From Cohnella rhizosphaerae (lineage in GTDB: Bacteria > Bacillota > Bacilli > Paenibacillales > Paenibacillaceae), in contig NZ_JAPDIA010000003.1 of assembly GCF_029525575.1 (NCBI RefSeq), forward strand, positions 496,001 to 560,000: DNA of 64,000 nucleotides, in the 5' to 3' direction. The notes under the pieces were generated by a model. The model had not been told where the DNA came from, made no database searches, and saw nothing but the letters and a program-made list of their open reading frames with translations. The position numbers were made by a program, and so were the translations under genes. This document shows, one piece after another, positions 6,540-60,780 of the stretch (position 1 is its first letter; each line of letters starts with the position of its first letter).

Positions 6540-6800
6540 TTCACCGAGCGTTTGCCGAAGAATTCTCGGTTAGGAAAGAACGAGTAGACTTGCGCTGTCG
6601 CCCCGCCGCCGAAGTCTCGGTTAGAAACGAACGAGTAGACTTGCGATGTCGCCCCGTCGCCGAAATCTCGGTTAGAAACAAACGGGCCCTCCTGCACCAG
6701 CGCGGGGGCTTCGAAGTTCCGTTTAGGAACAAACGGGCCCGCTTGCGCCATTGAGCGATCGTTGAAGTCTCGGTTAGGAACGAGGAGGAGATCAAGCGCA
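6540..6800. repeat. 51-bp tandem array A (5 copies)
   Basis: Five imperfect units with the landmark TCTCGGTTAG at 6564, 6615, 6666, 6717 (as TTCCGTTTAG) and 6768, a period of exactly 51 bp. The unit also carries GAACAAACG or GAACGAACG. Open frames across it follow from the multiple-of-three period and show no conserved protein. The core resembles the complement of the array at 41530. Confidence 0.9.
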
Positions 6801-6864
6801 TTTGTGCTCGATCTGGACACGGATAACCCGGGAGCTGGGAGCCGCGAGTCGGAAGCCGGGGGGC

Positions 6865-7052
6865 GATAAGTGTTGAAAAGCAGTTAATCGGCGCGCTGAC
6901 CGGGGCTGTGGAGGAAATAAGTGTTCAACCGCATTTAATTGGTTCAAGACCGGGTCAAAACGCGCGAAAGTGGGAATTTAATTGCGCTTTAACACTTATT
7001 TAGGCCAATAACGTCATGACCCAAGAAAATAAATGCGTTTCAACAGCTATTA
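6865..7052. repeat. Four copies of a 25-nt AT-rich motif, two direct and two inverted
   Basis: Motif close to AATAAGTGTTNAANNGCATT with a TTAATT end. Direct copies lie at 6865-6889 and 6915-6940, inverted copies at 6975-7001 and 7028-7052. Spacing is about 50-60 bp. The direct and inverted pairs could form a long cruciform or hairpin. It lies in a gene-free stretch. Confidence 0.75.
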
Positions 7053-7248
7053 CATACAGGCCGCGAGCGCCATGACGTCAAACCCGTCAGGATGCTAAGT
7101 AACCTTAAACCTTCGCGTATTCTGATCGCGCACAGACGCCATTCAATCGAACCTCGCTGGCGGCGGCTGTGGAGGCGTTGGCGCGGTTGGTTGTGCGTTC
7201 AGGCGGTCGCGGGCTGTCCACCGAACGTTGCACGCGCTTGATGCAAGG

Positions 7249-7289
7249 ACCGTCAGGGAGAGCCACGACCTTCCCTGACGGTTTTTTTT
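7249..7289 (+). terminator. Strong + strand terminator with no recognised gene upstream
   Basis: Perfect 11-bp stem ACCGTCAGGGA (7249-7259) / TCCCTGACGGT (7272-7282) with a run of eight T on the + strand. It overlaps the very end of the minus-strand YitT gene, but for that direction the T tract is on the wrong side. The stretch 7053-7248 upstream has no supported gene, only GC-rich sequence with short inverted repeats. Confidence 0.8.
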
Positions 7290-7935
7290 ATCCTGCGGCC
7301 ATCGTGGTAGCGGACGGGGAAGCGGTCTGACCGGGTGCCTGGCGCCGGGAGGCGTCCAGCCGTCCCTTGTACAGCGATATTACCGTGCCGGTGATCGCGA
7401 GCGAGAGCGCGGAGATCAGCGCGCCGCCGAGGGAGATGGCGGACAGGCTCGTCGCAATGACCGCGAGATCGAACGCGAAGCCGGTCTTGCCGGGGTCTCG
7501 CCCGTATTTGAGCTGCAGATAGCGGGCCAATACCGTCGAGCCGCCGAACGACGCGCCGTTTTTGAACAGGATGCAGATGCCGATGCCGACGAGCGCGCCG
7601 CCGGCGACAGCTTCGACCATGAGGGGCATGCCGTATTCGGGCAGCAGCCCTTCGAGCGCGGTCAAGCCGGACAGCAGGCCGATGGCCCCGATCGTCCGGA
7701 GCGTGAACGAGCGGCCCATTTTGACCCAGGCAAACAGCAGGAAGGGCAGGTTGATGAGGATAAACAGCACCGGGAACTTCATATGGAACAAGTAAGAGAG
7801 ACTGAGCGCCAGTCCGGCGCTGCCCCCGGTGACGATCCGGGCTTCCTTCAGCAGCGATACGCCGATGGCCGTGACGATGCAGCCCAGCGCGATGAGCAGC
7901 CATTCCCTGCGTCGCTGATGCATGATATGATTCAT
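7288..7935 (-). CDS. YitT family membrane protein
   Basis: A 215-residue YitT/DUF161 membrane protein with about six hydrophobic helices and the family glycine-rich signature VTGGSAGLALSLSYL near residue 36. It is shorter than the usual 280 residues and lacks the C-terminal DUF2179 domain. Its transport substrate is unknown. ATG 7935 follows GGAGG at eight bases. It is transcribed away from the Lrp-type regulator at 8106, so that regulator may control it, as YitT-like and export proteins are often Lrp targets. Confidence 0.8.
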   Translation of the reverse strand: MNHIMHQRRREWLLIALGCIVTAIGVSLLKEARIVTGGSAGLALSLSYLFHMKFPVLFILINLPFLLFAWVKMGRSFTLRTIGAIGLLSGLTALEGLLPEYGMPLMVEAVAGGALVGIGICILFKNGASFGGSTVLARYLQLKYGRDPGKTGFAFDLAVIATSLSAISLGGALISALSLAITGTVISLYKGRLDASRRQAPGQTASPSATTMAAG

Positions 7936-8105
7936 GACAAACGCCTCCGCTTCTGTTTGCCTACCATGAAGTAATGTTATCTTCCATGATACGCAGCGGA
8001 GAAGCGCCGAGAAAGGTTGAAGTGAAGCTCTTTTGTGTCACTTAATATCACATTGAAACAATAAGCGCCGGATGTCCTGCAATTTGAAGGTGAGGGTGAA
8101 ACGAC

Positions 8106-8558
8106 ATGGATCGCATAGACATCAGCCTGCTCAAGCTGCTTCAGGAGGACGGCCGAATGACGGTCAGCGAGCTGTCCAAGCGGTTGTCGCTCAGCCGCCC
8201 CAGCGTCTCGGAGCGTCTCGCGCGCCTGCAGGAGCGAGGCGTCATCACAGGTTTTTGCGCCGTCGTGTCGGCGCCGGCCGTCGGAAGAAGCGTACAGGTG
8301 ATCATTCAGGTCAGCGAGCTCAAGGTGTCCCCGCTCGTGTTCGAGCGGCGGATCGCGGAAGACAGCGACGTCTTGGAGTGCTATCGCGTGACGGGCGCCG
8401 TCACGTTCATCCTGAAGGCGGCCGTGACGGACCTGAACGCGTTGAACCGTCTCGTCGAACGGCTGCTGCCTTGCGGCATGCTGAATACGTCGGTGATTCT
8501 GTCGTCCCCCGTAGCCGGGCGGGCGGTGTTGCCGCAATCGGAGGCGTCGGACGCCTGA
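8106..8558 (+). CDS. Lrp/AsnC family transcriptional regulator
   Basis: A 150-residue regulator with an N-terminal helix-turn-helix (MTVSELSKRLSLSRPSVSERL, residues 18-38) and a C-terminal RAM ligand-binding domain (about residues 68-140, with VLECYRVTGAVTFILKA). Lrp/AsnC proteins sense amino acids or related metabolites. It is divergent from yitT across 170 bp that probably hold the shared promoter and operator. ATG 8106 has AAGGTGAGGG upstream. A hairpin terminator follows at 8621-8645. Confidence 0.88.
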   Translation: MDRIDISLLKLLQEDGRMTVSELSKRLSLSRPSVSERLARLQERGVITGFCAVVSAPAVGRSVQVIIQVSELKVSPLVFERRIAEDSDVLECYRVTGAVTFILKAAVTDLNALNRLVERLLPCGMLNTSVILSSPVAGRAVLPQSEASDA

Positions 8559-8620
8559 GCGCCGACAGGGCCGGAGCTCGTCAGCCGCTCCGCCGCGGAA
8601 GCGCAAAGCGCATAACCAAA

Positions 8621-8645
8621 AGGCGGAGCTGCCGGCGCTCCGCCT
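8621..8645. terminator. Hairpin between convergent lrp-type and AAA genes
   Basis: Perfect 9-bp stem AGGCGGAGC (8621-8629) / GCTCCGCCT (8637-8645) with a 7-nt loop. T-rich sequence is weak on both sides, so the efficiency is uncertain. Confidence 0.6.
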
Positions 8646-8762
8646 CTTCGCGCTGCCTTGCCCTGCCCTGCGGCGGGCGATCGTTTAAAATGATTGATCT
8701 ATCGCAGCGTTTATCATTAATCGAATAAAGCAAGCGAGTAAAGCGAAGCGGCCTGCGTAAGG

Positions 8763-8870
8763 CTATCGCGCAAAAGTACGCGATTGAGAGCCGCATTCGT
8801 TCGGCGTATCGTCTATCGCGCAAAAGTGCAGCCATACGAGCCTTGGATGATGCGCTTTTGCAGGATCGCA
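8763..8870. repeat. Degenerate 50-bp repeat pair
   Basis: CTATCGCGCAAAAGT occurs at 8763 and again at 8813, 50 bp apart. A partial inverted relative (GCGCTTTTGC) lies at 8852. The 8559-8870 gap otherwise holds only the hairpin at 8621. This looks like a decayed member of the window's approximately 51-bp repeat class. Confidence 0.55.
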
Positions 8871-10205
8871 TCAGTTCCCCGCCGAGAAGCCCACTCTGCG
8901 TCCGGCGCTCTCGGTCATCCACTCCCGGCTCCGTCCTTTGGACAGATCGGTTTTCATGCCCGCGATCAGCCGTTCCCAATCCGTCGATCCGGTCTGATGC
9001 AGCTCGAGCGCGGCCGAGACATAGAGCTCGGCGAGCTGCGCGAAAGTAAATCCCTCCGTCAAACGCGCAATCTCGGGAAGTGCCGTCTCTTCCGTCAGCC
9101 TTCCAGCTCCCTTGTAGACCAGGTAGGCTAGCCGCAGCGGCTCGCTCGGCAGCTTGACTTCGTAGGCGCGGTCGAAGCGCCCGGCCCGGTTCATGAGCGC
9201 GGGATCGATTTTCTCCGGATAATTCGTCGTCCCGATCAGGAAAATGCCCTCTCGCGAGGTCGCTCCGTCCAGCGTGTTGAGAAAGTACGAGCGGCACGAT
9301 TCGGGCATCGAATCGATGTCCTCGACGACGAGCACCATCGGCGCGAGCTTCACGGCTGCGTCGAACACCTGCTGGATCGATTCGCTGCCGGTAAACTCGG
9401 TGATCTGCCAGTAGGCGACCGGCGCGTTGACGGTGGCGGAGATCGATTTGACGAGCGTCGTCTTGCCGTTGCCCGGCTTGCCGTACAGCAGGATGCCCCG
9501 TTTGTAGGGGACGCCGTAGGTTTGATAGAAGCTGCGGTCGTCCGCGAAAAAGGTGTCCACGGAGCGGAAGATTTGCGCCTTCAAAGACTCGTCCATAAAC
9601 ACGCCATCCCGGTCGACCGGGCGCTCCGCAGTCTCGCGGCTGCGCTCGAGGCCGTCGCGGGTGTCCGTGAACACGAGCAGTTGCCGGTCGGCCAGCTGCC
9701 GTTCGCGCATCTCGCTCAGGAAGCTGCCGAGCTGCGCATCGCTCTCCGCGAATATAAGGTCCTCGTACCCCAGCCCGTATTGCGTGAGCCGGGGTACGCG
9801 GGCAAATGCCACGCGGTGCGCCGGATAGACGAACAGGTTGTTGCGGACGGCCATGCGAATGTCGTGCGCGCCGCCGGCGGACGGCTTGCGCGCAGGACCG
9901 GCGTCCGGCTCGGGGTCGGACGCATACTTGAAGCTGCGCGTCTCGACGAGATCGAACAGGCTGGCCGCGTGCTCCACGCCGGGGTAGCCGCCGCGAATGT
10001 CGTCCGCAAGCCCGTCCCAGGCGTCGTCGCTGTCTTCTTGATAATAGAGGTGGAATTCGTAGCCGTAGCGTTCGTCAAGCCAATCGGCAATGCGGCGCAC
10101 GGCCATCGTATAGTCGAAGTAGGCCTGCATGCCGGCAGGCTCCGCTGCATAGTCGTCCCGCCGGATGAGGAAAGGGCGCAGCGCTTTTGGATTCATTAAT
10201 GTCAT
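8871..10205 (-). CDS. AAA family ATPase (BCS1-like), translationally coupled to rtcB
   Basis: A 444-residue protein. The N-terminal 200 residues match no family I recognise. The C-terminal AAA domain has Walker A GKPGNGKTT (about residue 240), Walker B MVLVVEDID (about 290), sensor-1 LIGTTNYPEKID and the arginine finger region MNRAGRFDRAYE. Such ATPases remodel or unfold partners. The gene starts 5 bp after the rtcB stop, and its ribosome-binding site (AAAGGAG) is formed by the last rtcB codons, so translation is coupled. This argues for a function with RtcB, for example loading, remodelling or recycling the ligase; that is inference. Confidence 0.85.
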   Translation of the reverse strand: MTLMNPKALRPFLIRRDDYAAEPAGMQAYFDYTMAVRRIADWLDERYGYEFHLYYQEDSDDAWDGLADDIRGGYPGVEHAASLFDLVETRSFKYASDPEPDAGPARKPSAGGAHDIRMAVRNNLFVYPAHRVAFARVPRLTQYGLGYEDLIFAESDAQLGSFLSEMRERQLADRQLLVFTDTRDGLERSRETAERPVDRDGVFMDESLKAQIFRSVDTFFADDRSFYQTYGVPYKRGILLYGKPGNGKTTLVKSISATVNAPVAYWQITEFTGSESIQQVFDAAVKLAPMVLVVEDIDSMPESCRSYFLNTLDGATSREGIFLIGTTNYPEKIDPALMNRAGRFDRAYEVKLPSEPLRLAYLVYKGAGRLTEETALPEIARLTEGFTFAQLAELYVSAALELHQTGSTDWERLIAGMKTDLSKGRSREWMTESAGRRVGFSAGN

Positions 10206-10210
10206 AGATG

Positions 10211-11635
10211 TTATACTCCTTTAACTGTCGCGAGCGGCCGGCACTTGGCGACGACGGCCGCCAGGCCTGCGCCCGCCACGCTTTCTATAATTTGATCGAC
10301 GTCCTTGTAAGCCTGCGGCGACTCGTCGATGATCGCCTCGAGCGCGCGGTGATTGACGACGACCTCGTCCTCCTGTCCGACGCGCAGCGAGGCCGCGAAT
10401 TCGTCCACGGTGACGAGCTGCTTGGTCGCGTTGCGCGAGCGGACCCGGCCGGCGCCGTGGCAGATCGAGTGATAATTGCGCGCGCCGGACGGTACGCCGA
10501 CCATCAGGTAGGAGGACGTCCCCATCGATCCGGGGATGAGCGCCGGGTGCCCGGTCTCCCGGTACGGCTCCGGATTGTCCGGATGGCCCGGCGGGAGGGA
10601 GCGGGTCGCGCCTTTGCGGTGCACGAACAACGGCTCGCCGTCGTGGCTTTCCTCCAGCGCGTAGTTGTGCATCAGGTCGTACAGCGTGCGCGTCTCCGCC
10701 TGCGGGCCCAGCGTCTCGCGCAGCGCGTCCCTTACGGCGAAGGCGAGCAAATGGCGGTTCGCGACGGCGAAGTTGAGCGCGGCGTACATCAGATTGACGT
10801 ACGTGGCGCCCGCTTCGCTGTCCAGCGGCGCGAAAGCGAGCTTGGGATCCGCGGTGCCGAGGCCGAGCTTGCGCATCGTCTTGACGACTTCGGAGCCGCA
10901 GTGCTGGTTCACGGCGCCGCCCCACGAGCGCGAGCCCGAGTGGATCATGACGATGACCTGCCCGTCGCGCAGCCCCCAGCGCTCGCCGATGTCGCGATTC
11001 GCTTCGTCCAGCGTGACCGCCTGCAGCTCGACGAAGTGGTTGCCGCCGCCGAGCGTGCCGAGCTGGCGATGGGCCCGGTGCCACAAATGCTCGGGAATCC
11101 GGTTCAGCGCGTCTTCGTCGTAGCGGAAGCGGGCATGCTCTACGTGCGTGAGCGAGGTCGCCCTGCGAGGCGTGTAGGCGTCGGGCACGTATTTTCCGGG
11201 CAAGCCGTGGAGGCCTTTGATCAGCACGTCCTCAAGCCGAATGTCGGAGAAGTGCCCGCGGGCGTGATTTTCCGTCGGAATCCGCTTCTCGATCGCCTTC
11301 ACCAGCTTGCGCCGAAGCTTGACGTCCTTCAGGTCGTCCGCGTCCAGGTTCGTCAGGTGCACCCGCATCCCGCAGCCGATGTCGCTGCCGACGATGGTCG
11401 GGGAGACGAAGCCTTCGTCCGCCTGCCAGACGGCCGTCGTGCCGATGCAGGTGCCAACCCCGACGTGGGCGTCCGGCGTGTAGCTCATGTAGCGGATGTT
11501 CGGAATTTGCAGATTGTTGTTCGCAATCTCGAGCGGCTTGGCGCCCATGGCGCGGAACAGCGCGTCTCCGGCGAAGACGTGAAGATCGCCCGCGGGCAGA
11601 TCGATGCGCCGGTAATAAGTTTCGTTCGGTATCAT
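10211..11635 (-). CDS. rtcB: RNA-splicing ligase RtcB
   Basis: A 474-residue RtcB, which joins RNA ends bearing 2',3'-cyclic phosphate or 3'-phosphate to 5'-OH ends using GTP and Mn2+. Metal and active-site motifs are present: GSDIGCGMR with the metal Cys near residue 90, LGTLGGGNHF, MIHSGSRSWG, and NYHSICHGAGR with the guanylated histidine near residue 390. Length and motifs are complete. The preceding 5' region holds a promoter, a structured leader and a terminator (11678-11940). No archease gene is adjacent; instead the AAA ATPase follows. Confidence 0.95.
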   Translation of the reverse strand: MIPNETYYRRIDLPAGDLHVFAGDALFRAMGAKPLEIANNNLQIPNIRYMSYTPDAHVGVGTCIGTTAVWQADEGFVSPTIVGSDIGCGMRVHLTNLDADDLKDVKLRRKLVKAIEKRIPTENHARGHFSDIRLEDVLIKGLHGLPGKYVPDAYTPRRATSLTHVEHARFRYDEDALNRIPEHLWHRAHRQLGTLGGGNHFVELQAVTLDEANRDIGERWGLRDGQVIVMIHSGSRSWGGAVNQHCGSEVVKTMRKLGLGTADPKLAFAPLDSEAGATYVNLMYAALNFAVANRHLLAFAVRDALRETLGPQAETRTLYDLMHNYALEESHDGEPLFVHRKGATRSLPPGHPDNPEPYRETGHPALIPGSMGTSSYLMVGVPSGARNYHSICHGAGRVRSRNATKQLVTVDEFAASLRVGQEDEVVVNHRALEAIIDESPQAYKDVDQIIESVAGAGLAAVVAKCRPLATVKGV

Positions 11636-11677
11636 AAATTCGTTGTGACCTCTTATCGATTTGGATTTTTAGAAAAC

Positions 11678-11710
11678 AAAAAAAGACCGCAAGCCGATTC
11701 GCTCGCGGTC
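11678..11710 (-). terminator. Terminator hairpin in the rtcB leader
   Basis: On the minus strand the stem GACCGCGAGC / GCTTGCGGTC (one G-U pair; plus positions 11701-11710 and 11685-11694) is followed by seven T. It lies about 43 bases before the rtcB start, so it is placed to attenuate rtcB transcription. Confidence 0.8.
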
Positions 11711-11768
11711 CCTGGATACGTCAAGACAACCCCGTGGATTCAACGCTCTTCCCCAGCGGGAACGCGCA

Positions 11769-11876
11769 TTATCCGGGTCTGCCTCTTGGATCGGCCCGTA
11801 GAGGCCGGCGGACATCGAGCGGCATATTCAGTTGGGTCCAAGTGTCGTAGCGGCTGGTGAGTTGAATCGCGGTCAT
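11769..11876 (-). CDS. Possible 35-residue leader peptide ORF before rtcB
   Basis: ATG at 11876 stands about nine bases after AGGAGG and opens a 35-codon frame ending at 11769 (N-terminus MTAIQLTSRYDTWTQLN). The ribosome site and early codons are the left arm of the leader helix, so translation would compete with folding. The C-terminal half is Arg/Pro rich, and I recognise no family. It may be a regulatory leader peptide or chance. Confidence 0.3.
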   Translation of the reverse strand: MTAIQLTSRYDTWTQLNMPLDVRRPLRADPRGRPG

Positions 11877-11905
11877 GTCGGCCGGCCTCCTTTCTGATGA
11901 GATAA

Positions 11906-11940
11906 TGGCTATATTAAGGGGGATAGCCAAACCTTGTCAA
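11906..11940 (-). promoter_or_regulatory. rtcB: Promoter of the rtcB leader with an overlapping inverted repeat
   Basis: Minus-strand TTGACA (11935-11940) and TAATAT (11911-11916), 18 bp apart, form a good housekeeping promoter. An inverted repeat TGGCTAT-N10-ATAGCCA (11906-11912 and 11923-11929) covers the spacer and -10, as expected for a repressor operator. The regulator is unknown. Confidence 0.6.
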
Positions 11941-12096
11941 CCACTTTGATGAAAAAAGTTGATCGGGTCGATTAATATAGATAATCATTCGACTTTTCGA
12001 TAAATGAAATTTTTCATCCATAAAAAATACAATAAATATACATAATTAATGTGGCGATGTATATTGAATTTAACAACAAAAGGAGTGAGAGATCGA

Positions 12097-13354: not shown

Positions 13355-13470
13355 TTTAACAGCGTGAAGTGTGGACGTAGATCGATACTTAGGAGCCCGA
13401 CGCACGATCGCAGCAAAAAGAGTGGTCGTAGATCGATGCTTGGGAGCTGGACACACATTTCGTGCATATC
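13355..13470. repeat. 51-bp repeat, two copies
   Basis: CGTAGATCGATACTTAGGAGC (21 bases, quoted here only as its start CGTAGATCGATA) begins at 13376 and its partner CGTAGATCGATG at 13427, exactly 51 bp apart. Similarity extends over most of both units. No gene is supported in this gap. Confidence 0.7.
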
Positions 13471-14395: not shown

Positions 14396-14431
14396 TCGGG
14401 TAACCTCCTTCATGAATTCGATTTACAAAAA

Positions 14432-14985
14432 GTGACTCAAGGGTGCGTTATGCGGCGGAATCGCATAACTCCCGAGAAAACGTGACTCCAGGGCGCCGTT
14501 GTGCGGCGGAATCGCATAACTCCCGAGAAAACGTGACTCCAGGGCGCCGTTGTGCGGCGGAATCGCATAACTCCCGAGAAAACGTGACTCCAGGGCGCCG
14601 TTGTGCGGCGGAATCGCATAACTCCCGAGAAAACGTGACTCCAGGGCGCCGTTGTGCGGCGGAATCGCATAACTCCCGAGAAAACGTGACTCCAGGGCGC
14701 CGTTGTGCGGCGGAATCGCATAACTCCCGAGAAAACGTGACTCCAGGGCGCCGTTGTGCGGCGGAATCGCATAACTCCCGAGAAAACGTGACTCCAGGGC
14801 GCCGTTGTGCGGCGGAATCGCATAACTCCCGAGAAAACGTGACTCAAGGGCGCCGTTGTGCGGCGGAATCGCATAACTTCCGAGAAAACGTGACTCAAAA
14901 GCGCCGTTGTGCGGCGGAATCGCATAACTCCCCGCAAAACGTGACTCCAGGGCGCCGTTGTGCGGCGGAATCGCATATCTTGCAT
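14432..14985. repeat. 51-bp tandem array B (about 10.5 copies) between aguA and aguB
   Basis: GTGACTC marks unit starts at 14432, 14482, 14533, 14584, 14635, 14686, 14737, 14788, 14839, 14890 and 14941. The first unit is 50 bp and the rest 51 bp. Central copies are nearly identical, indicating recent expansion; edge copies differ. Each unit holds a potential stem GTTGTGCG / CGCATAAC around a 7-nt loop. Frames stay open only because 51 is divisible by three. Confidence 0.95.
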
Positions 14986-26097: not shown

Positions 26098-26320
26098 GTA
26101 TGATTCCTCCAGCCGAGATATGTAGGAGCCGTCTCCCCGTGTTCATGGTGGCTGAAACGATGCGTGTCCGCGGGAGGCGCTTGCCTTGCAAGTATCGTAG
26201 CCCAGACGGCCGGATTGATCAAGCGGGGAACAAGCGGAGGAGGGGTGGGGGACAAGCAGGGGACAAGCAGGTGCCGTGCCGGTGGCCCTACTTCCGCGGT
26301 GCCCGTTTGCCGTTAGTTTC

Positions 26321-26650
26321 GTTTGCGCCTTATCTTGGCCCCCGCAAGCAGCTTGAGCCCGGGGATAATGCCTTTTGCGCCTTATCTCGGCCTCCGCAGG
26401 CAGCTTGAGCCCACGGATAATGCCCTTTGCGCCTTATCTTGGCCCCCGCAAGCAGCTTGAGCCCGGGGATAATGCCTTTTGCGCCTTATCTCGGCCTCCG
26501 TAAGCAGCTTGAGTCCGGGGATAATGCCCTTTGCGCCTTATCTCGGCCTTCGCAGGCAGCTTGAGCCCACGGATAATGCCTTTTGCGCCTTATCTCGGCC
26601 TCCGTAAGCAGCTTGAGTCCGGGGATAATGCCCTTTGCGCCTTATCTCGG
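26321..26650. repeat. 52-bp tandem array C (7 copies)
   Basis: GCGCC marks units at 26325, 26377, 26429, 26481, 26533, 26585 and 26637, a strict 52-bp period. Each unit holds TTATC ... GATAA flanked by GC, giving a stem of about seven pairs. Because 52 is not a multiple of three, no frame stays meaningful. Upstream, 26098-26320 holds only short GGGACAAGCAG direct repeats. Confidence 0.92.
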
Positions 26651-26737
26651 CTGCTCAAGCAGTTGAAGAATGCGGGGTCGCGCCAGTCCTAACAGCAGCC
26701 CAAGCGCATCGCGCCCGGACTGCCGTCGAGCATGCAT

Positions 26738-30219: not shown

Positions 30220-30645
30220 TTTTCCGCGCACTCGCGCGGACCGGTCTAAAAGGTGTTGTAAGGGCACAGGCTCGCGGCACTGTCCAAAAGGAGCTGCAAG
30301 GGCAAAAAGTTACTCTACAGGCTCGCGGCACTGTCCAAATGGTGCTGTAAGGGCAAAAAGTTACTCTACAGCCTCGCGGCACTGTCCAAATGGTGCTGTA
30401 AAGGCAAAAAGTTGCTCTACAGGCTCGCGGACCGGTCTAAATGGTGCTGTAAAGGCAAAAAGTTACTCTACAGCCTCGCGGACCGGCCCAAAAGGTGCTG
30501 TAAGGGCAAAAAGTTACTCTACAGGCTCGCGGACCGGTCTAAATGGTGCTGTTAAGGCAAAAAGTTACTCTACAGGCTCGCGGACCGGTCCAAATGGTGC
30601 TGTAAAGGCAAAGTTACTCTACAGCCTCGCGGACCGGTCTAAGCA
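30220..30645. repeat. 51-bp tandem array D (8-9 copies)
   Basis: CTCGCGG marks units at 30271, 30322, 30373, 30424, 30475, 30526 and 30577 (strict 51 bp) and at 30626 (49 bp after a 2-bp loss), with a partial unit near 30230. Two variants mix: GCGGCACTGTCC and GCGGACCGGTC. All units end AGTTACTCTACAG. Confidence 0.93.
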
Positions 30646-30654
30646 TAGGCCTTC

Positions 30655-30726
30655 TCACTTCATGCCATTTCACTTCATGCCCTCTAGCTTCATGCCCTCT
30701 AGCTTCATGCCCTCTCGCCTCATGCC
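30655..30726. repeat. 15-bp tandem repeat (CTTCATGCCCTCTAG)n
   Basis: About five copies run from the end of array D into the last codons of the AraC-type gene, whose C-terminus they now form. Confidence 0.8.
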
Positions 30727-40445: not shown

Positions 40446-41523
40446 ATGGGGATGTCCCTTATCGTTTGCAAGCAGGCTCGAAAGGCAGACGGCCGCGCAT
40501 ACCGGCGCAGGCGCCGAAGCCGCTCTCGCGGCGCGGCCGGCAGCGAAGGCGGCGATTCATCGCAGCCTTCCCGGAAAAAAGAAAAAAGCGGGAAGAGCGT
40601 CCGCAGAGCGGAACGTCTGGGAAGCCCGGAAAGCCCGGAAAGCTCGGAAAGCCCGGAAACCCCGGAAAGCCCGGAAAGCCCGGAAAGCCCGGAAAGCGCC
40701 CGGCTCGAACGCCGGGCGCGCGCAAGCGTAGCGGAGACGGTGCGCGGGGGATGCGAGTCGCTCCCCGATCGCCTGGCCATACAGGGCGCCTAAGCCGGCG
40801 CGGGCTGAAGCGCATTGCGGGGTCGAAAGGCCATCGGGGCGCTCAAGGGGGGGGCTTGGCCGTCAAGCGGGCCAGTTCTGGCCGATCCGGCAGATCCGCC
40901 CGCTCAGATAGATCCGCCCAAGCCGATAGACCCGTCCGATCCGGCAGATCCGCCCGCTCAAGTAGACCCGCCAGATCCAGTAGACCCGCCAGATCCGGAC
41001 GACCCGCCGGCCCAGGCAATTCCGCCGGATCCGAGAGGTCTCGCGGGACCGGCGGGTCCCATGGGCCCCGCCGGACCTGCCGGCCCCGCAGGCGCTGCCG
41101 GTGCGAACGGTCAGCCCGGGATCGCGGGCCCGACCGGCACGAGCGGGCCTCCCGGCCCCGTCGGCCCTCCGGGTCCGCCCGGACCGATGGGCCCCCCCCG
41201 GACCGGCAGGGCCGCTACCCGCGGACATCGCCGTTTTGCCAAGCAACGCGCTGTATCTCGCTTTTCTGGAACAGACCGCGAGCGTCCCGGTCACGATCGG
41301 TGCCGGCCAATTCACGGTAAACGGCGTGCCCGCCGCTTCGTTCGAAGGGCTCGGTCCAAGCGCTTACTCGATGCTGTATTTGAATGGCGTGCCCCAAGAA
41401 CAGAACATCTACACGTTGACGCCTACGTCCGTGACGATCGATCCCGACGGTGCGACGCTTTTCGCAGGAACGCCGATCATGGTGCAGATCGTCAGCCTTA
41501 GCGTCGAGATCACAGGCAGCTAG
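40446..41523 (+). CDS. Collagen-like exosporium-type protein with C-terminal DUF4183 (several frame breaks)
   Basis: Reconstructed protein of about 358 residues: a basic N-terminus ([19 protein letters not shown]), a Gly-Lys-Pro collagen-type stretch (40610-40690), a linker of repeated DPP units, a second collagen-like region of Gly-X-Y triplets (41035-41215) and a DUF4183 domain ([32 protein letters not shown]). Frame shifts fit one extra base at each of A6 40575-40580, A6 40582-40587, G8 40847-40854 and C8 41192-41199. ATG 40446 has AAAAGGAGG upstream. It resembles BclA-like hair proteins. The N-terminal part is the least certain. Confidence 0.62.
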
Positions 41524-41529: not shown

Positions 41530-41990
41530 GGGGGGGCCGCACGAATTCGTTTCCAACCGAGATTACCGGTCCGCCCGCCGCCGCAGCCGCGCAAGTTTGG
41601 TCCCAACCGAGACTATCGGTCCGCCCCGCCGCCGCAGCCGCGCAAGTTTGGTCCCAACCGAGACTATCGGTCCGCCCCGACGCCGCTGCCGCGCAAGTTT
41701 GGTCCCAACCGAGACTATCGGTTCGCCCCGACGCCGCTGCCGAGCAAGTTTGATCCTGACCGAGACTACCGGTCCGTCCCGCCGCCGCCGCCGCGCAAGT
41801 TTGGTCCCAACCGAGACTATCGGTTCGCCCCGCCGCCGCAGCCGCGCAAGTTTGGTCCTGACCGAGACTATCGGTCCGCCCTGCCGCCGCTACCGCGCAA
41901 GTTTGGTCCCAACCGAGACTATCGGTTCGCCCCGCCGCCGCTGCCGCGCAAGTTTGGTCCCAACCGAGACTATCGGTTCGCCCCGACGCC
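41530..41990. repeat. 51-bp tandem array E (9 copies), overlapping the end of the exonuclease gene
   Basis: CCGAGA marks units at 41557, 41607, 41658, 41709, 41760, 41811, 41862, 41913 and 41964. The first step is 50 bp, all others 51. Each unit has TTTGGTCCCAACCGAGA, or a TTGATCCTGACC variant, and the small stem CCGA/TCGG. The last unit supplies the stop codon and final codons of the exonuclease III gene on the minus strand. Confidence 0.93.
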
Positions 41991-42755
41991 GTCCCAGACC
42001 GAATCGTCCAGCTCCAGCAGCACGGGGCAATGATCGCTGCCCATGACGGCGCAGTCGGTCGACGCTTCCCGCACGAAGGGGGCGAGCCGCGCGGATACGA
42101 GGAAGTAGTCGATGCGCCATCCGACGTTGCGCGCGCGGACGCCGGGCATGTAGGACCACCAGGAGTACACGTCGGTCCGGTCCGGGTACAGGTGGCGGAA
42201 CGTATCGACGAACCCCGCGCCCAGCAGCTCGCTCATTTTGGCGCGCTCCTCGTCCGTGAAGCCCGCGTTGCCGCGGTTCGGCTTCGGATTTTTCAGATCG
42301 ATCTCTTCGTGCGCGACGTTCAGATCGCCGCAGACGACGACGGGCTTGATCGCATCGAGCTCGGTCAGATATCGGCGGAAACGATCCTCCCACGCCAGCC
42401 GCAGATCAAGACGCGACAAGTCCCGCCGCGCGTTCGGCGTATAGACGTTGACCAGATAGAACCCCTCGAACTCCAGGGTCAGAATGCGGCCTTCCTCCTC
42501 GGCGTCCTCCTCGATCCCGTACCGCACCGACAACGGCTTGCGCTTCGTGAACACCGCGGTGCCGGAGTAGCCTTTTTGCTTCGCGTAATTCCAATACTGA
42601 CCGTACCGCTCTCCATGATCCACGCTGAGCTGGCCCTCCTGAAGCTTCGTTTCCTGCACGCAGAACAGATCCGCGTCCAATGCGTCGAAGTATTCGCCGA
42701 ACCCTTTATTCATCGCTGCCCGCAGCCCGTTCACGTTCCATGACGCCAGTTTCAT
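41970..42755 (-). CDS. exoA: Exodeoxyribonuclease III / AP endonuclease
   Basis: A 261-residue enzyme of the Xth/ExoA family that cuts at abasic sites in base-excision repair. Motifs: LASWNVNGLRA (residue 3), FCVQETKLQ with the catalytic Glu (about residue 34), YTPNARRDLSRL, VVCGDLNVAHEEIDL with Asp/Asn (about 148), WRIDYFLVSA and MGSDHCPVLLEL with the catalytic His (about 248). ATG 42755 has GAAGGAG upstream. Its last codons lie inside the final unit of a tandem array, so the C-terminal residues after SVWDG are probably array-derived. Confidence 0.93.
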   Translation of the reverse strand: MKLASWNVNGLRAAMNKGFGEYFDALDADLFCVQETKLQEGQLSVDHGERYGQYWNYAKQKGYSGTAVFTKRKPLSVRYGIEEDAEEEGRILTLEFEGFYLVNVYTPNARRDLSRLDLRLAWEDRFRRYLTELDAIKPVVVCGDLNVAHEEIDLKNPKPNRGNAGFTDEERAKMSELLGAGFVDTFRHLYPDRTDVYSWWSYMPGVRARNVGWRIDYFLVSARLAPFVREASTDCAVMGSDHCPVLLELDDSVWDGVGANR

Positions 42756-45540: not shown

Positions 45541-45640
45541 TTCGCCTACCTCGGTAGAAATTCTCGAGCAGGAACAAACCGCGCCAGATGTCTCGCCTAC
45601 CTCGGAAGGAAGTCTTGATCGGGAACAAACCGCGACCTGC
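45541..45640. repeat. 51-bp repeat, two copies
   Basis: CGCCTACCTCGG at 45543 and 45594, exactly 51 bp apart; both units end GGAACAAACCGCG, resembling the core of array A. The rest of the 45363-45717 gap holds the terminator and no gene. Confidence 0.75.
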
Positions 45641-45717
45641 GTCCTAGGCTTGCAGGACTGAACCGCGCGACTGTCGAATTAAGCGTTACCACCACCAGGA
45701 GAAGGCGAGATGCTGCT

Positions 45718-54500: not shown

Positions 54501-57500
54501 GGGCGAGACGACGTTCATGAGCTGGCCATCCGGCAGCAGCCCGATTCGCGTGACGCCGGAGGCGCCGGCCGGACGGTACCGAACGGACAACGTCCCGAGC
54601 GTCGAGCTCGCGGGAAGCGAGACCGTGCGGACGATCAAGCTCGAACCTATGCCTGAAGGCACCGTGCAGGGCCGGGTGACCCGGACGAACGGCAAGCCTG
54701 CGGAAAATGTCAACGTCCGGCTGGCGATCGAATTTCCCGAGGGGCAAGCGAGCTATTCGGCCGTCACGGACGCGAACGGCGCTTACAGGCTGAAGACGCC
54801 TGCGGCGTCCGGCGTGCTGACGTTCACGGGCGAAGGGGATCTGTCCGCGCGGCAGAACGTCACGGTGAAGGAAGGCGACACGGTCGTGATCGACCGTACG
54901 CTCGACGTGCCGCCCATCCAGAAGATCAAGATTAATCTGTATACCCGCTATGCGGGCGGACAATGGCAGGGGCCGCTGCCGATCGATTGGACGACGGGCA
55001 TTCATCTGCATATTCAAATTAACGGCGCTAATGTGACCTCGGAGACGACCGTCGTGCGCGCCGAATCCGGAGAGACGGTCGTCGTCTCGGCGGACGGCGG
55101 AGAAGGCGGACTCGGCGCGGACAAGAAAGTCATCGTCCTGGGGGGAAGGCGTCAACGAGGTGGACCTGCGGCTGGGCCAGATCGGGCAGCAGCTGGTCGG
55201 CACGTTGAAGTCGCCTGTCGGAGAGAGCTCCGCATATATCGGCGTCTGGCAGGCGACGCTGCAGCAGCTGGACGCGAACGGCGATTGGCGGCAGCCTGCC
55301 GAATGGCGGGGCGGCGGCTCGGGCTACGGCGACAAAGTCAAGCTGAGCTTGCCTTCCGCGCCGGGCCAGTACCGGTTGACGATCGACAACTGGCTGGGCC
55401 GGGCGTCCAAGACATTTACGACGGACGGGCAAAGTATCGTCGATATCGGTACGCTTCAGTTGAAGAGCGCGGCCGGCGCGTTCGAAGGGCGCGAGGGCTC
55501 GGGCATGACCGCGTACCCGCCGGCGCTGTCGCCAGGGCAGACGGCGAAGCTGAAGCTGACCTACCAAGCGGGCGAAGCGGCAAAAGACGTCGTCCTGCTG
55601 GCGGACGTGCCGCAAGGCGCCGAGCTCGTGCCGCAATCCGTCTCGCTGAACGGCAGTCCGGCAGCGTACAATCTCGACGGGACGGTGTTGTCCGTCTCCG
55701 CGGGCAGCCTGGCAGCGGGCGCTTCCGGTTCGCTAACCTATCAGGTGAAGCTGCTGCCCGGCGCGCCGTCCCGTCTCTCGTCGACCGGTCAGGCGTCGTA
55801 CGGACCGGCCGGCGGCAGGCGCACGGAGCTGCTCGGTTCCGCAGAACTGTCGAATGAGCCGTTGACGCTCTCCGCGCCGGGCTCGGTCACGGATTTGACC
55901 TGGTCGCTCGGCGGACGCGCGCCTGCCGGCGCCGTCGTGAAGGTGCTCGCCTCCGGCGCGCCGATCGGGGAAGCGACCGCGAGCCCCGGCGGCTTCTGGC
56001 AGTTGAACGCGACGGCGCCGGATCCCAAGGGGGCCAAGACGTTCGAGCTGCGCGCCGAAGCGTCATGGGACGGGGAGACGCTGACGACGCCGGTCGCGCC
56101 GGTCGCCTACGACCCGGACCGTCCGACGATTCGCAAGCTTACGCTCGAACAGAGCGACGGACGCAGGGTCGAGCTCGACGTATCGAACGGCCCGATCCGT
56201 TTTCCGTACGTGGTCGTGCCGGGCAGAGACTTCCGCTTCGAGGTGGCGTTTAACCGGCCCGAACGCGTCGAGCACGTACAGGTGCATCTCGTGGTGAACG
56301 GCCGGGACGTGGCGGCCGACGCGGAGCTTAAGGACGGAATATACATCGCGGCGATGAACTTCTCGGGCACGATATCGGAGAATATCTACGTGACGTACGA
56401 CATCAAGCCGGCGGGCGTGAAGCAGATCGGCAGCGAGCGGGAATTCAGCGAGGCGCTCCCGCCAGGCATGCGCGGCTACGAAGCGGACGCGTCCAGCGCG
56501 TTCAAGACGGACGGGGCAGGCATCCTCCGCGGGTCCGCCGATATCAAGCTGCCGCAGGCCAGCGATCTGGCGATGCACGTCGATCTGTCGCTGCAGTCCG
56601 GGGCGTCCTATACGCCGACGGAGGAAGAGCTGCGGCGGGCGCAAGCCGACGGCGTCGAGGCTTATGGCGTCGAATACGCGTTCGAGCAGGGCGACAAAGG
56701 CGAGATGAGCGTAACGTTTACCGCCTATGTACCGGAAAACCTGATCGGCGGATCGGACCGGACGCTGGCAGCCATCATGTCGGCGGCTGCGGGGAAAGGG
56801 CAATCCGCTTCTGCGAAGGGGGCCTCCGTTCGTATCTCGAGTCTGGCGAGCGGCATCGGCAGCCTCGTCAAGGTGGGCGCCAAGGTGCTGTGGAACGAAA
56901 AGGATCTCGCGGGCCAGGCAGGCAAGGGCGCAGCTTCCATCTACGATACGAAGAGCGCGGTGGACGGCCGCGGACAGGTCGCTGACAATATGGCGGCCCT
57001 GGGCGATCTCGCGGACCGGATCGCGCAGTGCAACCCGGCGATGGCCGGCTATTACGGCGCCAAGATCGACCAGCTGGCGACGCATGCGATCGCCGTCGAA
57101 GGGGCGAAGTGGGGCATGATGATCGCGGGCGCCGTGCTTGCGCCGGCTACGTTCGGCGGCTCGCTCGCCCTGATGGGCGCCAGCATGGCGATCGGCGCCG
57201 CGCTGGACGCCAGCGTCAGCCACCAGACGGAGCAGCTGACGAACCTGGCGAACAAGTCCGGGAAAGGCGAATGCGAGCCCAAGGACCCGGACGGCAGCGT
57301 GTCGGAGACGCATCTGGGCAATCCCGTCGCCACGCCGGTATGGATCTACGATCCAAGCGGGTACGTTTACGAGACATTCCCGGACAACCGGATCGCAGAC
57401 GCCAAGGCCACCGTCTATTATCTGGATCAGGTCTCGGGCGGCTACTTGCCTTGGGACGCCGAATGGTACGGACAGGCCAACCCGCAGACGACGGACGCCC

Positions 57501-59620
57501 AGGGCAAATACGGCTGGGACGTACCGCCGGGCAAATGGCAGGTCGTCTACGAGAAGGCGGGCTACGAGCCGGCGAAAAGCGCGGAGCTCGACGTGCCGCC
57601 GCCGCAACTCGAGGTGAACGTGCCGATGGTGTCCTACGCGGCTCCGCGCATCGAGGCGGCGCCCAAGGCGACCGTGTCGACGGACGGCGGCATCGTCATC
57701 GTATTCCGGACCGACAAGTACGTCTCCGCAGGCGCGTTGACGGATGAAGGCGTCAAGGCGACCGTCGGAGGCGAGGCGCTCGCGGGCACGCTTGAGGCGG
57801 TCGACGCGCGCGTCGGAGACGACGGCGTCGCGCTGGCGCGAACGTTCCGGTTCGTGAGCCCGATCTCGGTGCCGGCTGGCGAATCGGTCGGACTTTCGGT
57901 GAACGCGGCCAACGTCGTCAGCTATTCGGGTACGGCCATGGCCGAGAACTATGCGGCGAACGTCCTGGTCGCAGCGCCGGATTTGGCAGGACCGGGCGCG
58001 ATCTCCGCTATCGCTTCCGCGTCGGGCGCAGTCGTCACGCTGAGCTTCGACGAGGACCTGGACGTATTCGCGCCCGTCTCGAAGGGCAGCTTCGCGATCG
58101 AGGATGTCCCGGTCGCCGTCATGGGCGCCGACTACGGCGCCGACGGCCGATCGGTCCGCCTGACGCTGTCCGCCAAGCTGTCAGCGGGCGTTAAGCCCGC
58201 GCTCTCCGCGGCGCCGGGGGCGGTCCGCGACCGCAGCGGCAACGTCTATGCCGGCGGCACCGCGCAGATCGACAATCCGCGCCTGTCGTCCGACGCGTCG
58301 CTGGCATCGCTTGCCGTCGAAGGCTATGCGCTGTCTCCGGCCTTCGCGCCGGAGACGACCGATTACCGCGTCACCCTCCCGGCAGGCGTCGCCGCGATCG
58401 CCGTCAAGGCATCGCCTCGCGGCGCGGGCGCGACCGTTCGCGCCAACGGCGTCCCGGTCGGCGAAAATACGGCTGTGGCCGTGCCGATCGAAGACGAAAC
58501 CGTGCTGTTTGAGGTCACGGCGCCGGACGGCGCAGCCAAGCGCTACTACGAGATTGCGGTCGAACGCGGCGACACGGGCGGACCAGGTGGCCCTGGCGGA
58601 CCTGGCGGACCAGGCCCCGGCGTGCCGACGGACGCTTCAGGAGGCGGCGAGCCGGTGACCGCCGACGGCGTCCTCGACGTCCCGGCCGGCCGCGCCGGCA
58701 AGCTGACCTACGGCGACGAAGCCGTCGTGACGCTGCCTGCGAACGCGCTCGATCAGGCTTACCGCGCGACGATCGCCAAGCTTGAGGTTTATCCGCAGGC
58801 GCCAGCGGGCGCCGCGCTGATCAGCCCTGTGTTCGAGATCGGCAAAAGCGTGCCGGGTTCGTTCAAAGCGGCCGTCGAGCTGCGCTTCAAGCTGACGAGG
58901 CAGCCGATCGTCGGCGAGACCGCCGCGATCCATTATTTCGACGAAAAGGCGGGCAAGTGGATCTCCCTTGGCGGCAAGCTGTCCAAAGACACGATCGTCG
59001 GCGAGACCGACCACTTCACGAAGTTTGCCGTATTCGCCTCCGCGCAGGCGCCGCAGGAGCCGACGGACATCGCGGGCCATTGGGCGGCGGCGCTGATCCG
59101 GGACGCGCTGAAGCTGGGTATCGTGTCCGGCTATCCGGACCGCACCTTCAAGCCGAATGCGACCGTCACGCGCTTCGAGTTCGCGGTCATGCTGTCCAAG
59201 GCGTTGGGACTTGCGCCTGAAGCAGGGATAGCGGCGTCCGCGAAGCCGGACGTTTCCGGCTTCGCGGACGCCGCTTCGATCCCGGCTTGGGCGGCCCCGC
59301 ACGTTGCGGCGGCTGCTTCCAAGGGGCTCGTCGGCGGCTACGCGGACGGCGCCTTCCGCGGGGGACGGACGATCACGCGCGCAGAGCTCGCCGTCATCGT
59401 CGCACGCGCGCTGGGAGAAGACGCCGGCCTTGACGGCGGACAGCCGGACTTCGCGGATGCCGGCGAGATCCCGGATTGGGCGAAGGAGCAGACGGCGCTG
59501 GCCGAGCGGGCGGGTATTTTACAGGGCCGCGGCGGCGGCAGGTTCGTGCCGAACGGTCAAGCTACGCGCGCGGAGGCGCTCAAGATCGTGCTCGCGCTCG
59601 CCGAACTTCAGAAAAAATAA
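51515..59620 (+). CDS. Giant S-layer-homology surface protein (three frame breaks)
   Basis: About 2,700 residues. A signal peptide (about 1-30) is followed by WD40/PD40-like propeller repeats (about 50-455; ITPDGRYVVFES, AISADGTRVVFAS, DISPDGRHVGFVS), three fibronectin-III domains (about 462-750), carboxypeptidase-regulatory-like beta domains (about 950-1110), a long middle region with a hydrophobic patch near 1865-1900, a cadherin-like beta-sandwich (about 2255-2348), a Gly-Gly-Pro linker and three SLH repeats (about 2515-2700) that anchor it to cell-wall polymer. Breaks: G6 at 52018-52023, 53674-53679 and 55140-55145, one extra G each. TTG 51515 has GGAGGG upstream. Confidence 0.88.
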
Positions 59621-59642
59621 ATCGCGAAGCAGACGTTAAATT

Positions 59643-59683
59643 AAGCCGTTCGCGGGCTCGCCGACGCCGGGAACGGCTTTTCC
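59643..59683 (+). terminator. Terminator after the SLH protein gene
   Basis: AAGCCGTTC (59643-59651) / GAACGGCTT (59671-59679), 9-bp perfect stem, followed by TTCCC. Confidence 0.7.
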
Positions 59684-59827
59684 CATCTCGCAGCTTCACA
59701 TGCAAAATTCCGTTTGCGCCTCGCTGCCCCCGTCGTTGAGACCGATTGTGTGACGTGTCCGGATATGTTACGTTCAAGCCATGAGGAAATGTCCGATGCT
59801 TATACGCCGAAGAGGAGGAATTCTCCC

Positions 59828-60253
59828 GTGGAATGGAACTATTACAACACCTTTATCGCCGTGTCGGACGATTGCCCCGTCGAGTACGGCGCGGTGCCGC
59901 CGGACAAGGCGGCCGGCAAGACGAAGCCGGGCATCGAGTACGATATGATCGCCGGCGAGCCCTACGCGCACACGCAGGAAGAGATTTTGTACGAGACCTA
60001 CGTTCGCCACAAGCAGCTCTCGCCCGAGGAGCGGCAGGCGCGGGAGGCGGAGATGCGGGCTGAATTTTACGGCAAGCCGAAAGCTTGCATGCGGGCCTCG
60101 ATGCTGCCGAAGAAGTACGGCTGGGGCCTGCACTTCAACGCCGAGGGGAAGGTTGCGCTCGTCCCCAAAGAGTCGGAGGACTACGGCCGGTTCGCGGACG
60201 GCGAGGTCGAGGGCGTGAAGGTGCTCAAGGCGATGCGCAACAAAAAGGCGTGA
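59828..60253 (+). CDS. DUF6157 family protein
   Basis: A 141-residue protein: VEWNYYNTFIAVSDDCPVEY start, KPGIEYDMIAGEPYAHTQEE, and the C-terminal GWGLHFNAEGKVALVPKESE with KVLKAMRNKKA. I assign it to DUF6157; its function is unknown. GTG 59828 lies nine bases after GAGGAGGA. The frame is open further upstream, but no better start is seen. It is a single gene ending before a strong terminator. Confidence 0.78.
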   Translation: MEWNYYNTFIAVSDDCPVEYGAVPPDKAAGKTKPGIEYDMIAGEPYAHTQEEILYETYVRHKQLSPEERQAREAEMRAEFYGKPKACMRASMLPKKYGWGLHFNAEGKVALVPKESEDYGRFADGEVEGVKVLKAMRNKKA

Positions 60254-60302
60254 CTGGGCGGCGGCGAGTTGCAGCTTCACCGGAGGGAGTCGCATAAGAA
60301 CA

Positions 60303-60343
60303 AAAAAAAGGCTTAAGCCGGTTTGCGGCTTGAGCCTTTTTTT
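60303..60343. terminator. Bidirectional terminator
   Basis: A long near-perfect hairpin: AAAAAAAGGCTTAAGCCG (60303-60320) / CGGCTTGAGCCTTTTTTT (60326-60343), with A and T tracts on both sides. Confidence 0.9.
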
Positions 60344-60780
60344 AAACGATCGGAATGTATAAGTTCACGCAGAAATCGCAGGCTTCTCTTGCTAACCTCG
60401 CGGCGAAGATAGGCGGAAAGGCAAGCGGATAGCTGCAAATGAGAACTGTGTGAAGAAGTGGAAGGCAGTTGGGCGGTCGGACAGCGGGCACAGGGCATCG
60501 GACCCAGGACACGCTATTTGGTAAAAAACAGTCCAAATGCGAGAACTTTGGACTGGAGGGACATTATTACCCCAAGTTAAGGCTAAACAAGGCCGGAAAT
60601 TCCGCCATAACGGCCTCTGAGTCCGCGAGCGGTCCGCGAATCGCGATAGGGTCAAGGATAACGGCTCCTCTGTCCGCATCTGTCCGTCCGCTACGCGCTT
60701 ATTGCAAACCAAAGACCGCAGGCGGCTTTCTTGTCGCATGCGAAGCGAAACGACCCGTCAGGCTATTACGGATATAGCGG
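60344..60780. other. Gene-free stretch with a hairpin and a 51-bp repeat
   Basis: It contains a perfect inverted repeat CAGTCCAAA (60529-60537) / TTTGGACTG (60547-60555) with a 9-nt loop, and a repeat pair starting ATAACGGC at 60607 and 60658, exactly 51 bp apart. Open frames here lack ribosome sites and resemble no family. Confidence 0.65.

What the first reader, a model, noticed from the sequence alone, without database searches (positions are those of the whole stretch)
6540..60680. A 51-bp period shared by unrelated tandem repeats in most gene-free gaps
Arrays at 6540 (5 copies), 14432 (about 10.5), 30220 (8-9) and 41530 (9), and two-copy remnants at 13376, 45543 and 60607, all have a period of exactly 51 bp. 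Array 26321 has 52 bp, and the pair at 8763 has 50. Unit sequences differ, yet the period is constant. Ordinary slippage should give varied periods. Some units share a core (TCTCGGTTAGGAAC or its complement), suggesting one fast-evolving family. 51-52 bp is close to five DNA turns, so phased protein binding, a fixed-length copying mechanism or a transcribed hairpin element are possible. I know of no description of such a family.
Basis: seen in the sequence. Interest (0 to 1): 0.8.

Follow-up and report, generated by a model that had tools for sequence, protein, structure and literature searches.

The report
Palindromes spaced by whole helix turns
In the gaps between genes of this bacterium and its relatives, short DNA palindromes are repeated in rows whose spacing (about 51, 62, 72, 83, 93 or 105 bases) is close to a whole number of turns of the double helix, so they likely all face one side of the DNA and would serve as docking sites for a protein that assembles along it.

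Summary
In 864 kb of this genome 28 non-coding arrays have periods of 49-52 bp (21 at 51); over 2.54 Mb including 14 relatives, 61 of 73 non-coding arrays of period 35-130 are 49-53. The class is in print (52-nt repeats of Bacillus and Paenibacillus, PMC8161180), its size unexplained. New here: (1) units are a conserved core, often an imperfect palindrome, plus a free linker. (2) Linker sequence turns over, length does not: orthologous arrays in a sister species share the core, match at 15 of 29 linker bases, and are both 51 bp. (3) The period is not one number: two other palindrome families in the genus form arrays at 62, 72-73, 83, 93-94 and 105 bp, near 6 to 10 turns of 10.4 bp; one stem sequence has all but 62. 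One array steps 94, 94, 105, 126, 105. So 51 bp looks like the five-turn member. (4) Arrays favour convergent gene ends and avoid divergent promoters. This points to duplex DNA with same-face protein docking; protein and function are inferred. A few arrays (43, 44, 47, 55 bp) do not fit. Slippage, RNA hairpins and REP/RAYT mobility fit less well.

The parts
6560..6785 (+). Family A array: five cores (GAAGTCTCGGTTAGGAACRAAC-like) at exactly 51-bp steps
   Evidence: core starts 6560, 6611, 6662, 6713, 6764; TRF 6560-6684
6871..7045 (.). Family E quartet: two cores on +, two on -, 51-bp step inside each pair; same kind of quartet at L037 9024 and 15250 (51 and 50 bp)
8763..8835 (.). Two-copy pair, 50-bp step (CTATCGCGCAAAAGT)
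13376..13453 (.). Two-copy pair, 51-bp step (CGTAGATCGATRCTTRGGAGC)
14427..14977 (-). Family D array, 10.8 copies of 51 bp; core on the minus strand GAGTTATGCGATTCCGCCGCACAAC; single copy at the same place in relative G012
26312..26666 (+). Family G array, period 52, 7 cores (GATAATGCCYTTTGCGCCTTATC); 52-bp array at the same place in G012
30236..30639 (+). Family B array, period 51 (GCTGTAARGGCAAAAAGTTACTCTACAGC)
41545..41991 (-). Family A array, nine cores, period 51 (first step 50); array at the same place in G012 keeps core and length, not linker
45551..45641 (+). Two family A cores 51 bp apart
60600..60681 (.). Two weak copies 51 bp apart
   Evidence: 18 of 31 bases

Best explanation
These are rows of short palindrome-like cores whose spacing is close to a whole number of DNA helical turns (5 turns = 51-52 bp in this window; 6 to 10 turns in other families of the genus), so the cores likely sit on one face of the helix as docking sites for a dimeric DNA-binding protein that would assemble side by side along the row. 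Shown by sequence: conserved cores that are palindromic in many units, freely changing linkers of guarded length, spacing classes about 10.4 bp apart, and placement at gene ends. Inferred: that a protein binds, that binding is cooperative, and that the row works as a local architectural element (an insulator, read-through block or supercoil buffer) between converging genes. Change in copy number and turnover are presumably ordinary unequal recombination; selection would remove linkers that put a core on the wrong face.
For: Family K: 36 arrays with a modal core spacing of at most 115 bp, in 5 genomes, have modes 62 (18), 63 (1), 72-73 (3), 83 (5), 93-94 (8), 105 (1); resultant at 10.4 bp 0.97; five classes this close to multiples of 10.4 have P about 0.0001 (comb fixed at 10.4) or 0.009 (comb period free 8-13, best 10.35). 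In this genome alone K has 62, 72, 83, 93, 94 and 105; one array steps 93.5, 94, 104.5, 126, 105, 105, 105, 104.5. Family J: 46 arrays, modes 72-73 (43), 62 (2), 83 (1). Linker length is guarded: 99 of 107 indels inside 49-53 arrays are 1 bp, against 63 of 114 in orthologous intergenic DNA of G012 (Fisher 1e-10); arrays at one place in G000 and G012 are both 51 bp with linker identity 15/29. Palindromes: inverted-repeat z mean 1.13 over 61 arrays, t-test 2e-8. Gap type: convergent 25 of 58 gaps with arrays vs 261 of 1584 other gaps; divergent 3 of 58 vs 281 of 1584.
Against: No protein, binding or expression data. Only 17 of 61 arrays have an inverted repeat that passes p<=0.05 singly; families A and G are weak palindromes, and none of the window's own five arrays passes. 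Five other non-coding periods are off the comb: 43 (2), 44, 47, 55; all 12 periods outside 49-53 together give only R = 0.58 at 10.4. Off-phase single spacings: K 40, 56, 57.5, 99; J 69, 70 and, over a missed core, 159; B 158 and D 59. With the comb phase left free the best period is 10.5 (all 36 K arrays) or 10.7 (without the 62 class) rather than 10.4. The 62-bp K and J arrays have a different outer stem from the 72-105-bp ones; for the four classes with the same K stem the free-comb P is only 0.07. Several core families per genome would need several proteins or a shape-reading one. Family D stems covary, which also fits a folded strand. Arrays within a spacing class are partly related by descent, and the six genomes with J and K are relatives.
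Confidence: 0.6

Rival explanations
1. The fixed spacing is mutational: the process that duplicates or homogenises units (recombinase synapsis, hairpin-driven replication switching) only works between palindromes that are in helical phase; no selected function.
For: Copy number is highly dynamic (G000 10.8 copies, G012 one copy at the same place) and linkers are homogenised within arrays. Off-phase K spacings (99, 56, 57.5, 40) occur but each was seen once.
Against: Cores stay while linkers turn over, and the gap-type bias asks for some selection. I know of no enzyme that would do this (recall, not searched).
Confidence: 0.18
2. The arrays act as RNA: tandem hairpins transcribed from gene ends (small RNAs, protein sponges or mRNA 3' ends), as Subirana & Messeguer discuss.
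For: Transcription of the repeats in B. coagulans is reported (PMC8161180 text, PMC8625621 abstract). Family D stems show paired changes: 165 of 220 cells Watson-Crick paired vs 145.3 +- 4.1 shuffled. Arrays lie near 3' ends.
Against: RNA gives no reason for spacings about one B-DNA turn apart. No Rfam match in the window at gathering score. In tandem gaps arrays are only weakly nearer the 3' end (20 of 30, p = 0.10).
Confidence: 0.11
3. Neutral slippage plus shared ancestry: all arrays descend from one 51-bp ancestor and simply keep its length.
For: Families are dispersed and cores are shared. The rate of indel events per substitution in arrays is only slightly below background (0.082 vs 0.107-0.153).
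Against: Linkers diverge strongly while length is kept; indels over 1 bp are depleted; related cores appear at lengths about one turn apart.
Confidence: 0.06
4. REP-type mobile palindromes spread by a RAYT (Y1) transposase.
For: Extragenic, palindromic, dispersed, high copy, at gene ends, stem variants.
Against: Pfam Y1_Tnp (PF01797) has 0 matches in this genome (91.5% complete) and matches in 12 of 37 genomes of the genus; of the six genomes with J and K cores only G013 has one. [quoted passage not shown]
Confidence: 0.05

Closest known systems
52-nt (51-53) and 20-21-nt fixed-size tandem repeats of Bacillus/Paenibacillus (Subirana & Messeguer, PMC8161180)
   Same: Non-coding, constant unit size, variable sequence, several families per genome, short conserved signals whose reverse is often in the same unit, only partly conserved between strains.
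   Different: They report two main fixed sizes (and a few of 40-41 nt, which they relate to the 20-21 class) and see no obvious explanation, though they note that 20-21 nt is two helix turns. Here the unit is resolved as core plus linker, and further sizes (62, 72, 83, 93, 105) suggest whole helical turns as the rule; their 20-21, 40-41 and 52 also fit 2, 4 and 5 turns.
F-plasmid parS/sopC centromere (twelve 43-bp repeats with ten 16-bp inverted repeats bound by ParB; PMC6238139, passages)
   Same: Tandem units each with an inverted-repeat site for a DNA-binding protein; large nucleoprotein assembly.
   Different: One centromere locus of a plasmid; here many chromosomal arrays of many families, binding protein unknown. 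43 bp is 4.1 turns.
REP/BIME elements
   Same: Extragenic palindromes in high copy.
   Different: No Y1 transposase match in this genome; head-to-tail arrays of strict spacing, where HH and TT dimers predominate in REPs (PMC3733652, passages).
CRISPR arrays
   Same: Palindromic repeat alternating with a second segment at fixed period.
   Different: Linkers are near-copies of each other within an array, not unique spacers; many arrays per genome. Leader and cas genes were not looked for.

Membership tests
Fixed-size 52-nt bacterial tandem repeats (PMC8161180) | Unit of about 51-53 nt dominates non-coding arrays | tested here: met
   61 of 73 non-coding arrays of period 35-130 are 49-53, of which 59 are 51 or 52
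Fixed-size 52-nt bacterial tandem repeats (PMC8161180) | Unit sequences differ, several families per genome, short shared signals | tested here: met
   Families A, B, C, D, E, G, H in G000
Fixed-size 52-nt bacterial tandem repeats (PMC8161180) | Non-coding | tested here: met
   28 of 28 G000 arrays of 49-52 overlap no predicted gene by more than 40 bp (home-made gene caller); in relatives 2 such arrays fall in predicted ORFs
Fixed-size 52-nt bacterial tandem repeats (PMC8161180) | Only two non-coding unit sizes (20-21 and 52) | tested here: not met
   62, 72-73, 83, 93-94, 105 in the same genus and (K) the same genome
REP/BIME with RAYT | Y1 tyrosine transposase in the genome | tested here: not met
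   0 PF01797 matches in G000; genome 91.5% complete
REP/BIME with RAYT | GTAG or CGTC tag beside the stem | not tested
   No systematic scan made
sopC-like ParB centromere arrays | Tandem repeats each with an inverted-repeat site | tested here: inconclusive
   Clear in families C, D, H, J, K; weak in A and G; 17 of 61 arrays pass p<=0.05 singly
sopC-like ParB centromere arrays | Bound by a ParB-family protein | not testable with these tools
   needs binding data
CRISPR | Unique spacers between identical repeats | tested here: not met
   Linkers are near-copies within each array
CRISPR | Adjacent cas genes | not tested
   -
Known structured RNA | Rfam family match | tested here: not met
   0 matches at gathering score in the window

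The most novel reading that the evidence does not exclude
A general phasing rule: fixed-size bacterial 'satellites' (20-21, 41, 51-52, 62, 72-73, 83, 93-94, 105 bp) are one class of element, rows of palindromic docking sites held at whole helical turns, on which a still unknown DNA-binding protein builds a one-faced, chromatin-like filament that insulates converging genes.
Probability: 0.36. Interest if true: 0.9.

Novelty: new variant of a known kind. Interest (0 to 1): 0.72.

Why it matters
The published puzzle is why unrelated repeats in many Firmicutes share one unit size while their sequences differ. Spacing in whole helical turns would answer the 'why this size' part, says that the working form is likely duplex DNA, and makes it testable: shifting a linker by 5 bp should break it, by 10 bp should not. 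If a protein is found, it would be a new kind of locally phased bacterial chromatin at gene ends, with many sites per genome.

Tried and rejected
Inverted-repeat test on consensus units: only 7 of 28 G000 arrays reach p<=0.05 (none of the five in the window) and 17 of 61 in the larger set; I therefore do not claim a strong hairpin in every family. Covariation: family D exceeds shuffles (0 of 1000 reach it), but the 20 rows were picked by eye, one per array or solo copy, are related, and G003 L125 was left out because its pairing register differed; family J (42 sequences picked from the listings) shows no excess (226 of 1000 shuffles reach it). The wobble asymmetry in D rests on two or three columns, so I draw no strand conclusion. 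Indel rate: array copies have only slightly fewer indel events per substitution than orthologous intergenic DNA (0.082 vs 0.107-0.153); the strong signal is indel length, and TRF may favour regular arrays. Comb test: the periods 43, 43, 44, 47 and 55 do not fit. From the modes 123 (2), 124 (3) and 249 (1) were dropped for the strict test (6 of 42 clusters), because the one-mismatch pattern misses intermediate cores. K listings are incomplete for G000 (125 matches; 'only the first places' listed), as are B listings (100 of 290). The profile scan gives shifted duplicate hits for B (spacings 19 and 32) and many weak single hits for D and G; I used only the clustered ones. A partner protein was not sought beyond PF01797. 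Paper searches; none of the titles or abstract starts listed there names helical-turn spacing of such repeats; (Cohnella) was too loose to tell. The authors' earlier J Bacteriol paper is not held (the DOI was from recall), so I know it only through PMC8161180. Rfam and tRNA scans of the window gave nothing.
Full report
Observation. The window holds four tandem arrays of period 51 (6560, 14427, 30266, 41553) and one of period 52 (26322), five family A cores at 51-bp steps from 6560, and two-copy pairs whose best shift is 51 bp (13376, 45551, 60600) or 50 bp (8763). In 40 systematic 20-kb stretches of the same genome (G000, 8.5 Mb) plus the window, 28 non-coding arrays have period 49-52: 21 at 51, 5 at 52, one each at 49 and 50. 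Coding arrays, counted over the 14 genomes then sampled, are mostly multiples of three (18, 21, 24 most often) with a single 51. Over 2.54 Mb from G000 and 14 relatives, 61 of 73 non-coding arrays of period 35-130 are 49-53; the rest are 41, 43 (2), 44, 47, 55, 62, 72, 82, 83, 104 and 125. By genome, the 61 lie in G000 (28), G046 (10), G013 (6), G012 (5), G018 (5), G003 (4), G016 (2) and G010 (1). None was found in the samples of five other same-genus genomes (G004, G005, G006, G014, G015; 60-100 kb each) or of two genomes of other families (G019, G023; 60 kb each).

Prior art. Subirana and Messeguer (PMC8161180; [quoted passage not shown] They see no obvious explanation for the size and discuss nucleoid proteins or small RNAs.

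Anatomy. In many arrays a stretch of about 20-29 bp is conserved between copies and the rest varies. Cores sort into families: A, B, C, D, E, G and H in G000, J and K across the genus. Many cores are imperfect inverted repeats; over 61 arrays the mean z against shuffled units is 1.13 (t-test 2e-8), though only 17 pass p<=0.05 singly. Family K cores are near-perfect (for instance GAACCGCACA-TTTTT-TGTGCGGTTC, with loops of slightly varying length), as are J cores (GAATAGCGC-AAAAAT-GCGCTATTC). Family D stems vary between arrays in a paired manner (165 of 220 cells paired, shuffled 145.3 +- 4.1; 20 hand-picked rows). Family E appears as two plus and two minus cores, in the window and at two places in L037.

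Length is guarded, sequence is not. At window 41553 the sister species G012 has an array at the same place with the same core (20 of 22 bases) but only 15 of 29 linker bases in common, and both units are 51 bp; at 26322 both are 52 bp (unit sequences chosen by eye). Inside 49-53 arrays 99 of 107 indels are 1 bp, while in orthologous intergenic DNA of the window 63 of 114 (G012), 60 of 111 (G013), 24 of 43 (G005) and 35 of 71 (G018) are (Fisher 7e-7 to 5e-11). The rate of indel events itself is only slightly lower. In G000, spacings between adjacent listed cores up to 220 bp are 51, 52 or their multiples (within 2 bp) for 72 of 73 family B pairs (the other is 158) and 64 of 65 family D pairs (the other is 59) (for B 100 of 290 matches were listed).

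The period looks like a number of helical turns. Family J (271 listed cores in 6 of 37 genomes of the genus) forms 46 arrays with modes 72-73 (43), 62 (2) and 83 (1); departures of more than 2 bp from these modes are 53, 69 and, over a missed core, 134 and 159. Family K (200 listed cores in the same 6 genomes) forms 42 clusters of two or more; 36 have a modal spacing of 115 or less: 62 (18), 63, 72 (2), 73, 83 (5), 93 (4), 94 (4), 105. The resultant length at 10.4 bp is 0.97 for all and 0.955 for the 17 outside the 62 class; with phase left free the best comb is 10.5 and 10.7; over all 42 modes it was 10.35. Five spacing classes this close to multiples of 10.4 have P of about 0.0001 under uniform spacings (0.009 if the comb period is free; best 10.35); with the 51-bp class added, 5.5e-5 and 0.0018; with the four classes of the same K stem alone (72, 83, 93, 105), 0.001 and 0.07. 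In G000 the sub-family with stem GAACCGCACA...TGTGCGGTTC makes arrays at 72, 83, 93, 94 and 105 bp, and one array at C4:197500 steps 93.5, 94, 104.5, 126, 105, 105, 105, 104.5, i.e. about 9, 9, 10, 12, 10, 10, 10 and 10 turns. The 62-bp arrays have another outer stem. The off-phase K spacings (40, 56, 57.5, 99) were each seen once. With 10.35 bp per turn, five turns are 51.75 bp, the window's 51-52, and two and four turns are 20.7 and 41.4, the published 20-21 and 40-41 classes. Against this, non-coding arrays of 43 (2), 44, 47 and 55 bp do not fit, and all 12 periods outside 49-53 taken together give R = 0.58.

Place. Of 58 gaps with arrays (periods 49-53, 41, 62, 72, 82, 83, 104, 125), 25 are convergent, 30 tandem and 3 divergent, against 261, 1042 and 281 of 1584 other gaps (Fisher 3e-6 for convergent, 0.012 for divergent). 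In tandem gaps arrays are nearer the upstream gene's 3' end in 20 of 30 (p = 0.10).

Turnover. The gap at 14427 has 10.8 family D copies in G000 and a single D unit in G012; G013 and G005 instead hold two pairs of unrelated repeats 50-51 bp apart and G018 one such pair (for G018 the printed 53 is between two different motif starts, and the shared GCAGTT is 51 apart). The gap is only 28-43 bp, flank bases included, in G001, G003, G004 and G015. The block 6498-7283 (A array plus E quartet) is absent at the same place in G012, G013 and G018.

Mechanism. Helical-turn spacing of palindromes is what same-face binding of a dimeric, side-by-side assembling protein needs (general knowledge of phased operators, not tested here); it is not expected for RNA hairpins, slippage or a single fixed-length copier. 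I therefore favour phased docking arrays (0.60), with the caveat that a phase-sensing recombination or replication process without function remains possible (0.18). The binding protein, cooperativity and the insulating role between converging genes are inferred. No Y1 (RAYT) transposase matches were found in G000 or in four of the five other genomes with J and K cores, which speaks against REP mobility. The nearest working analogue is the F-plasmid sopC centromere, twelve 43-bp repeats with ParB-binding inverted repeats (PMC6238139, passages).

Verdict. A known class of fixed-size repeats, with a new candidate rule for its size that can be tested directly.

Noticed in passing
window 6498-7283: A roughly 785-bp block (family A array plus family E quartet) absent at the same place in three relatives; a similar A-plus-E composition occurs at L037 14978-15430, so the block may move as a unit.
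   Followed up: partly
L037 9024-9200, 15250-15430; window 6871-7045: At these three places family E cores come as two plus, two minus cores, a large palindrome of palindromes resembling a miniature transposon end pair.
   Followed up: no
window 30649-30726: Five 15-bp repeats (GCCCTCTCGCTTCAT) directly beside the 51-bp array.
   Followed up: no
window 40622-41101: 9- and 18-bp repeats upstream of the 41553 array; look like a coding, collagen-like stretch (not tested).
   Followed up: no
L136 4820-5173, L189 14375-14541, L095 11837-11968, L108 6584-6795: Non-coding arrays with periods 43, 43, 47 and 55 that do not fit whole helical turns.
   Followed up: partly
L045 2053-3071: A 274-bp tandem unit containing several TAGCGG/CTGAGTCC-like stretches, resembling the window's 60607 pair.
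   Followed up: no
L199 958-1031: A perfect 37-bp linker duplication that puts one family K palindrome about half a turn out of phase (99-bp step); seen once.
   Followed up: partly
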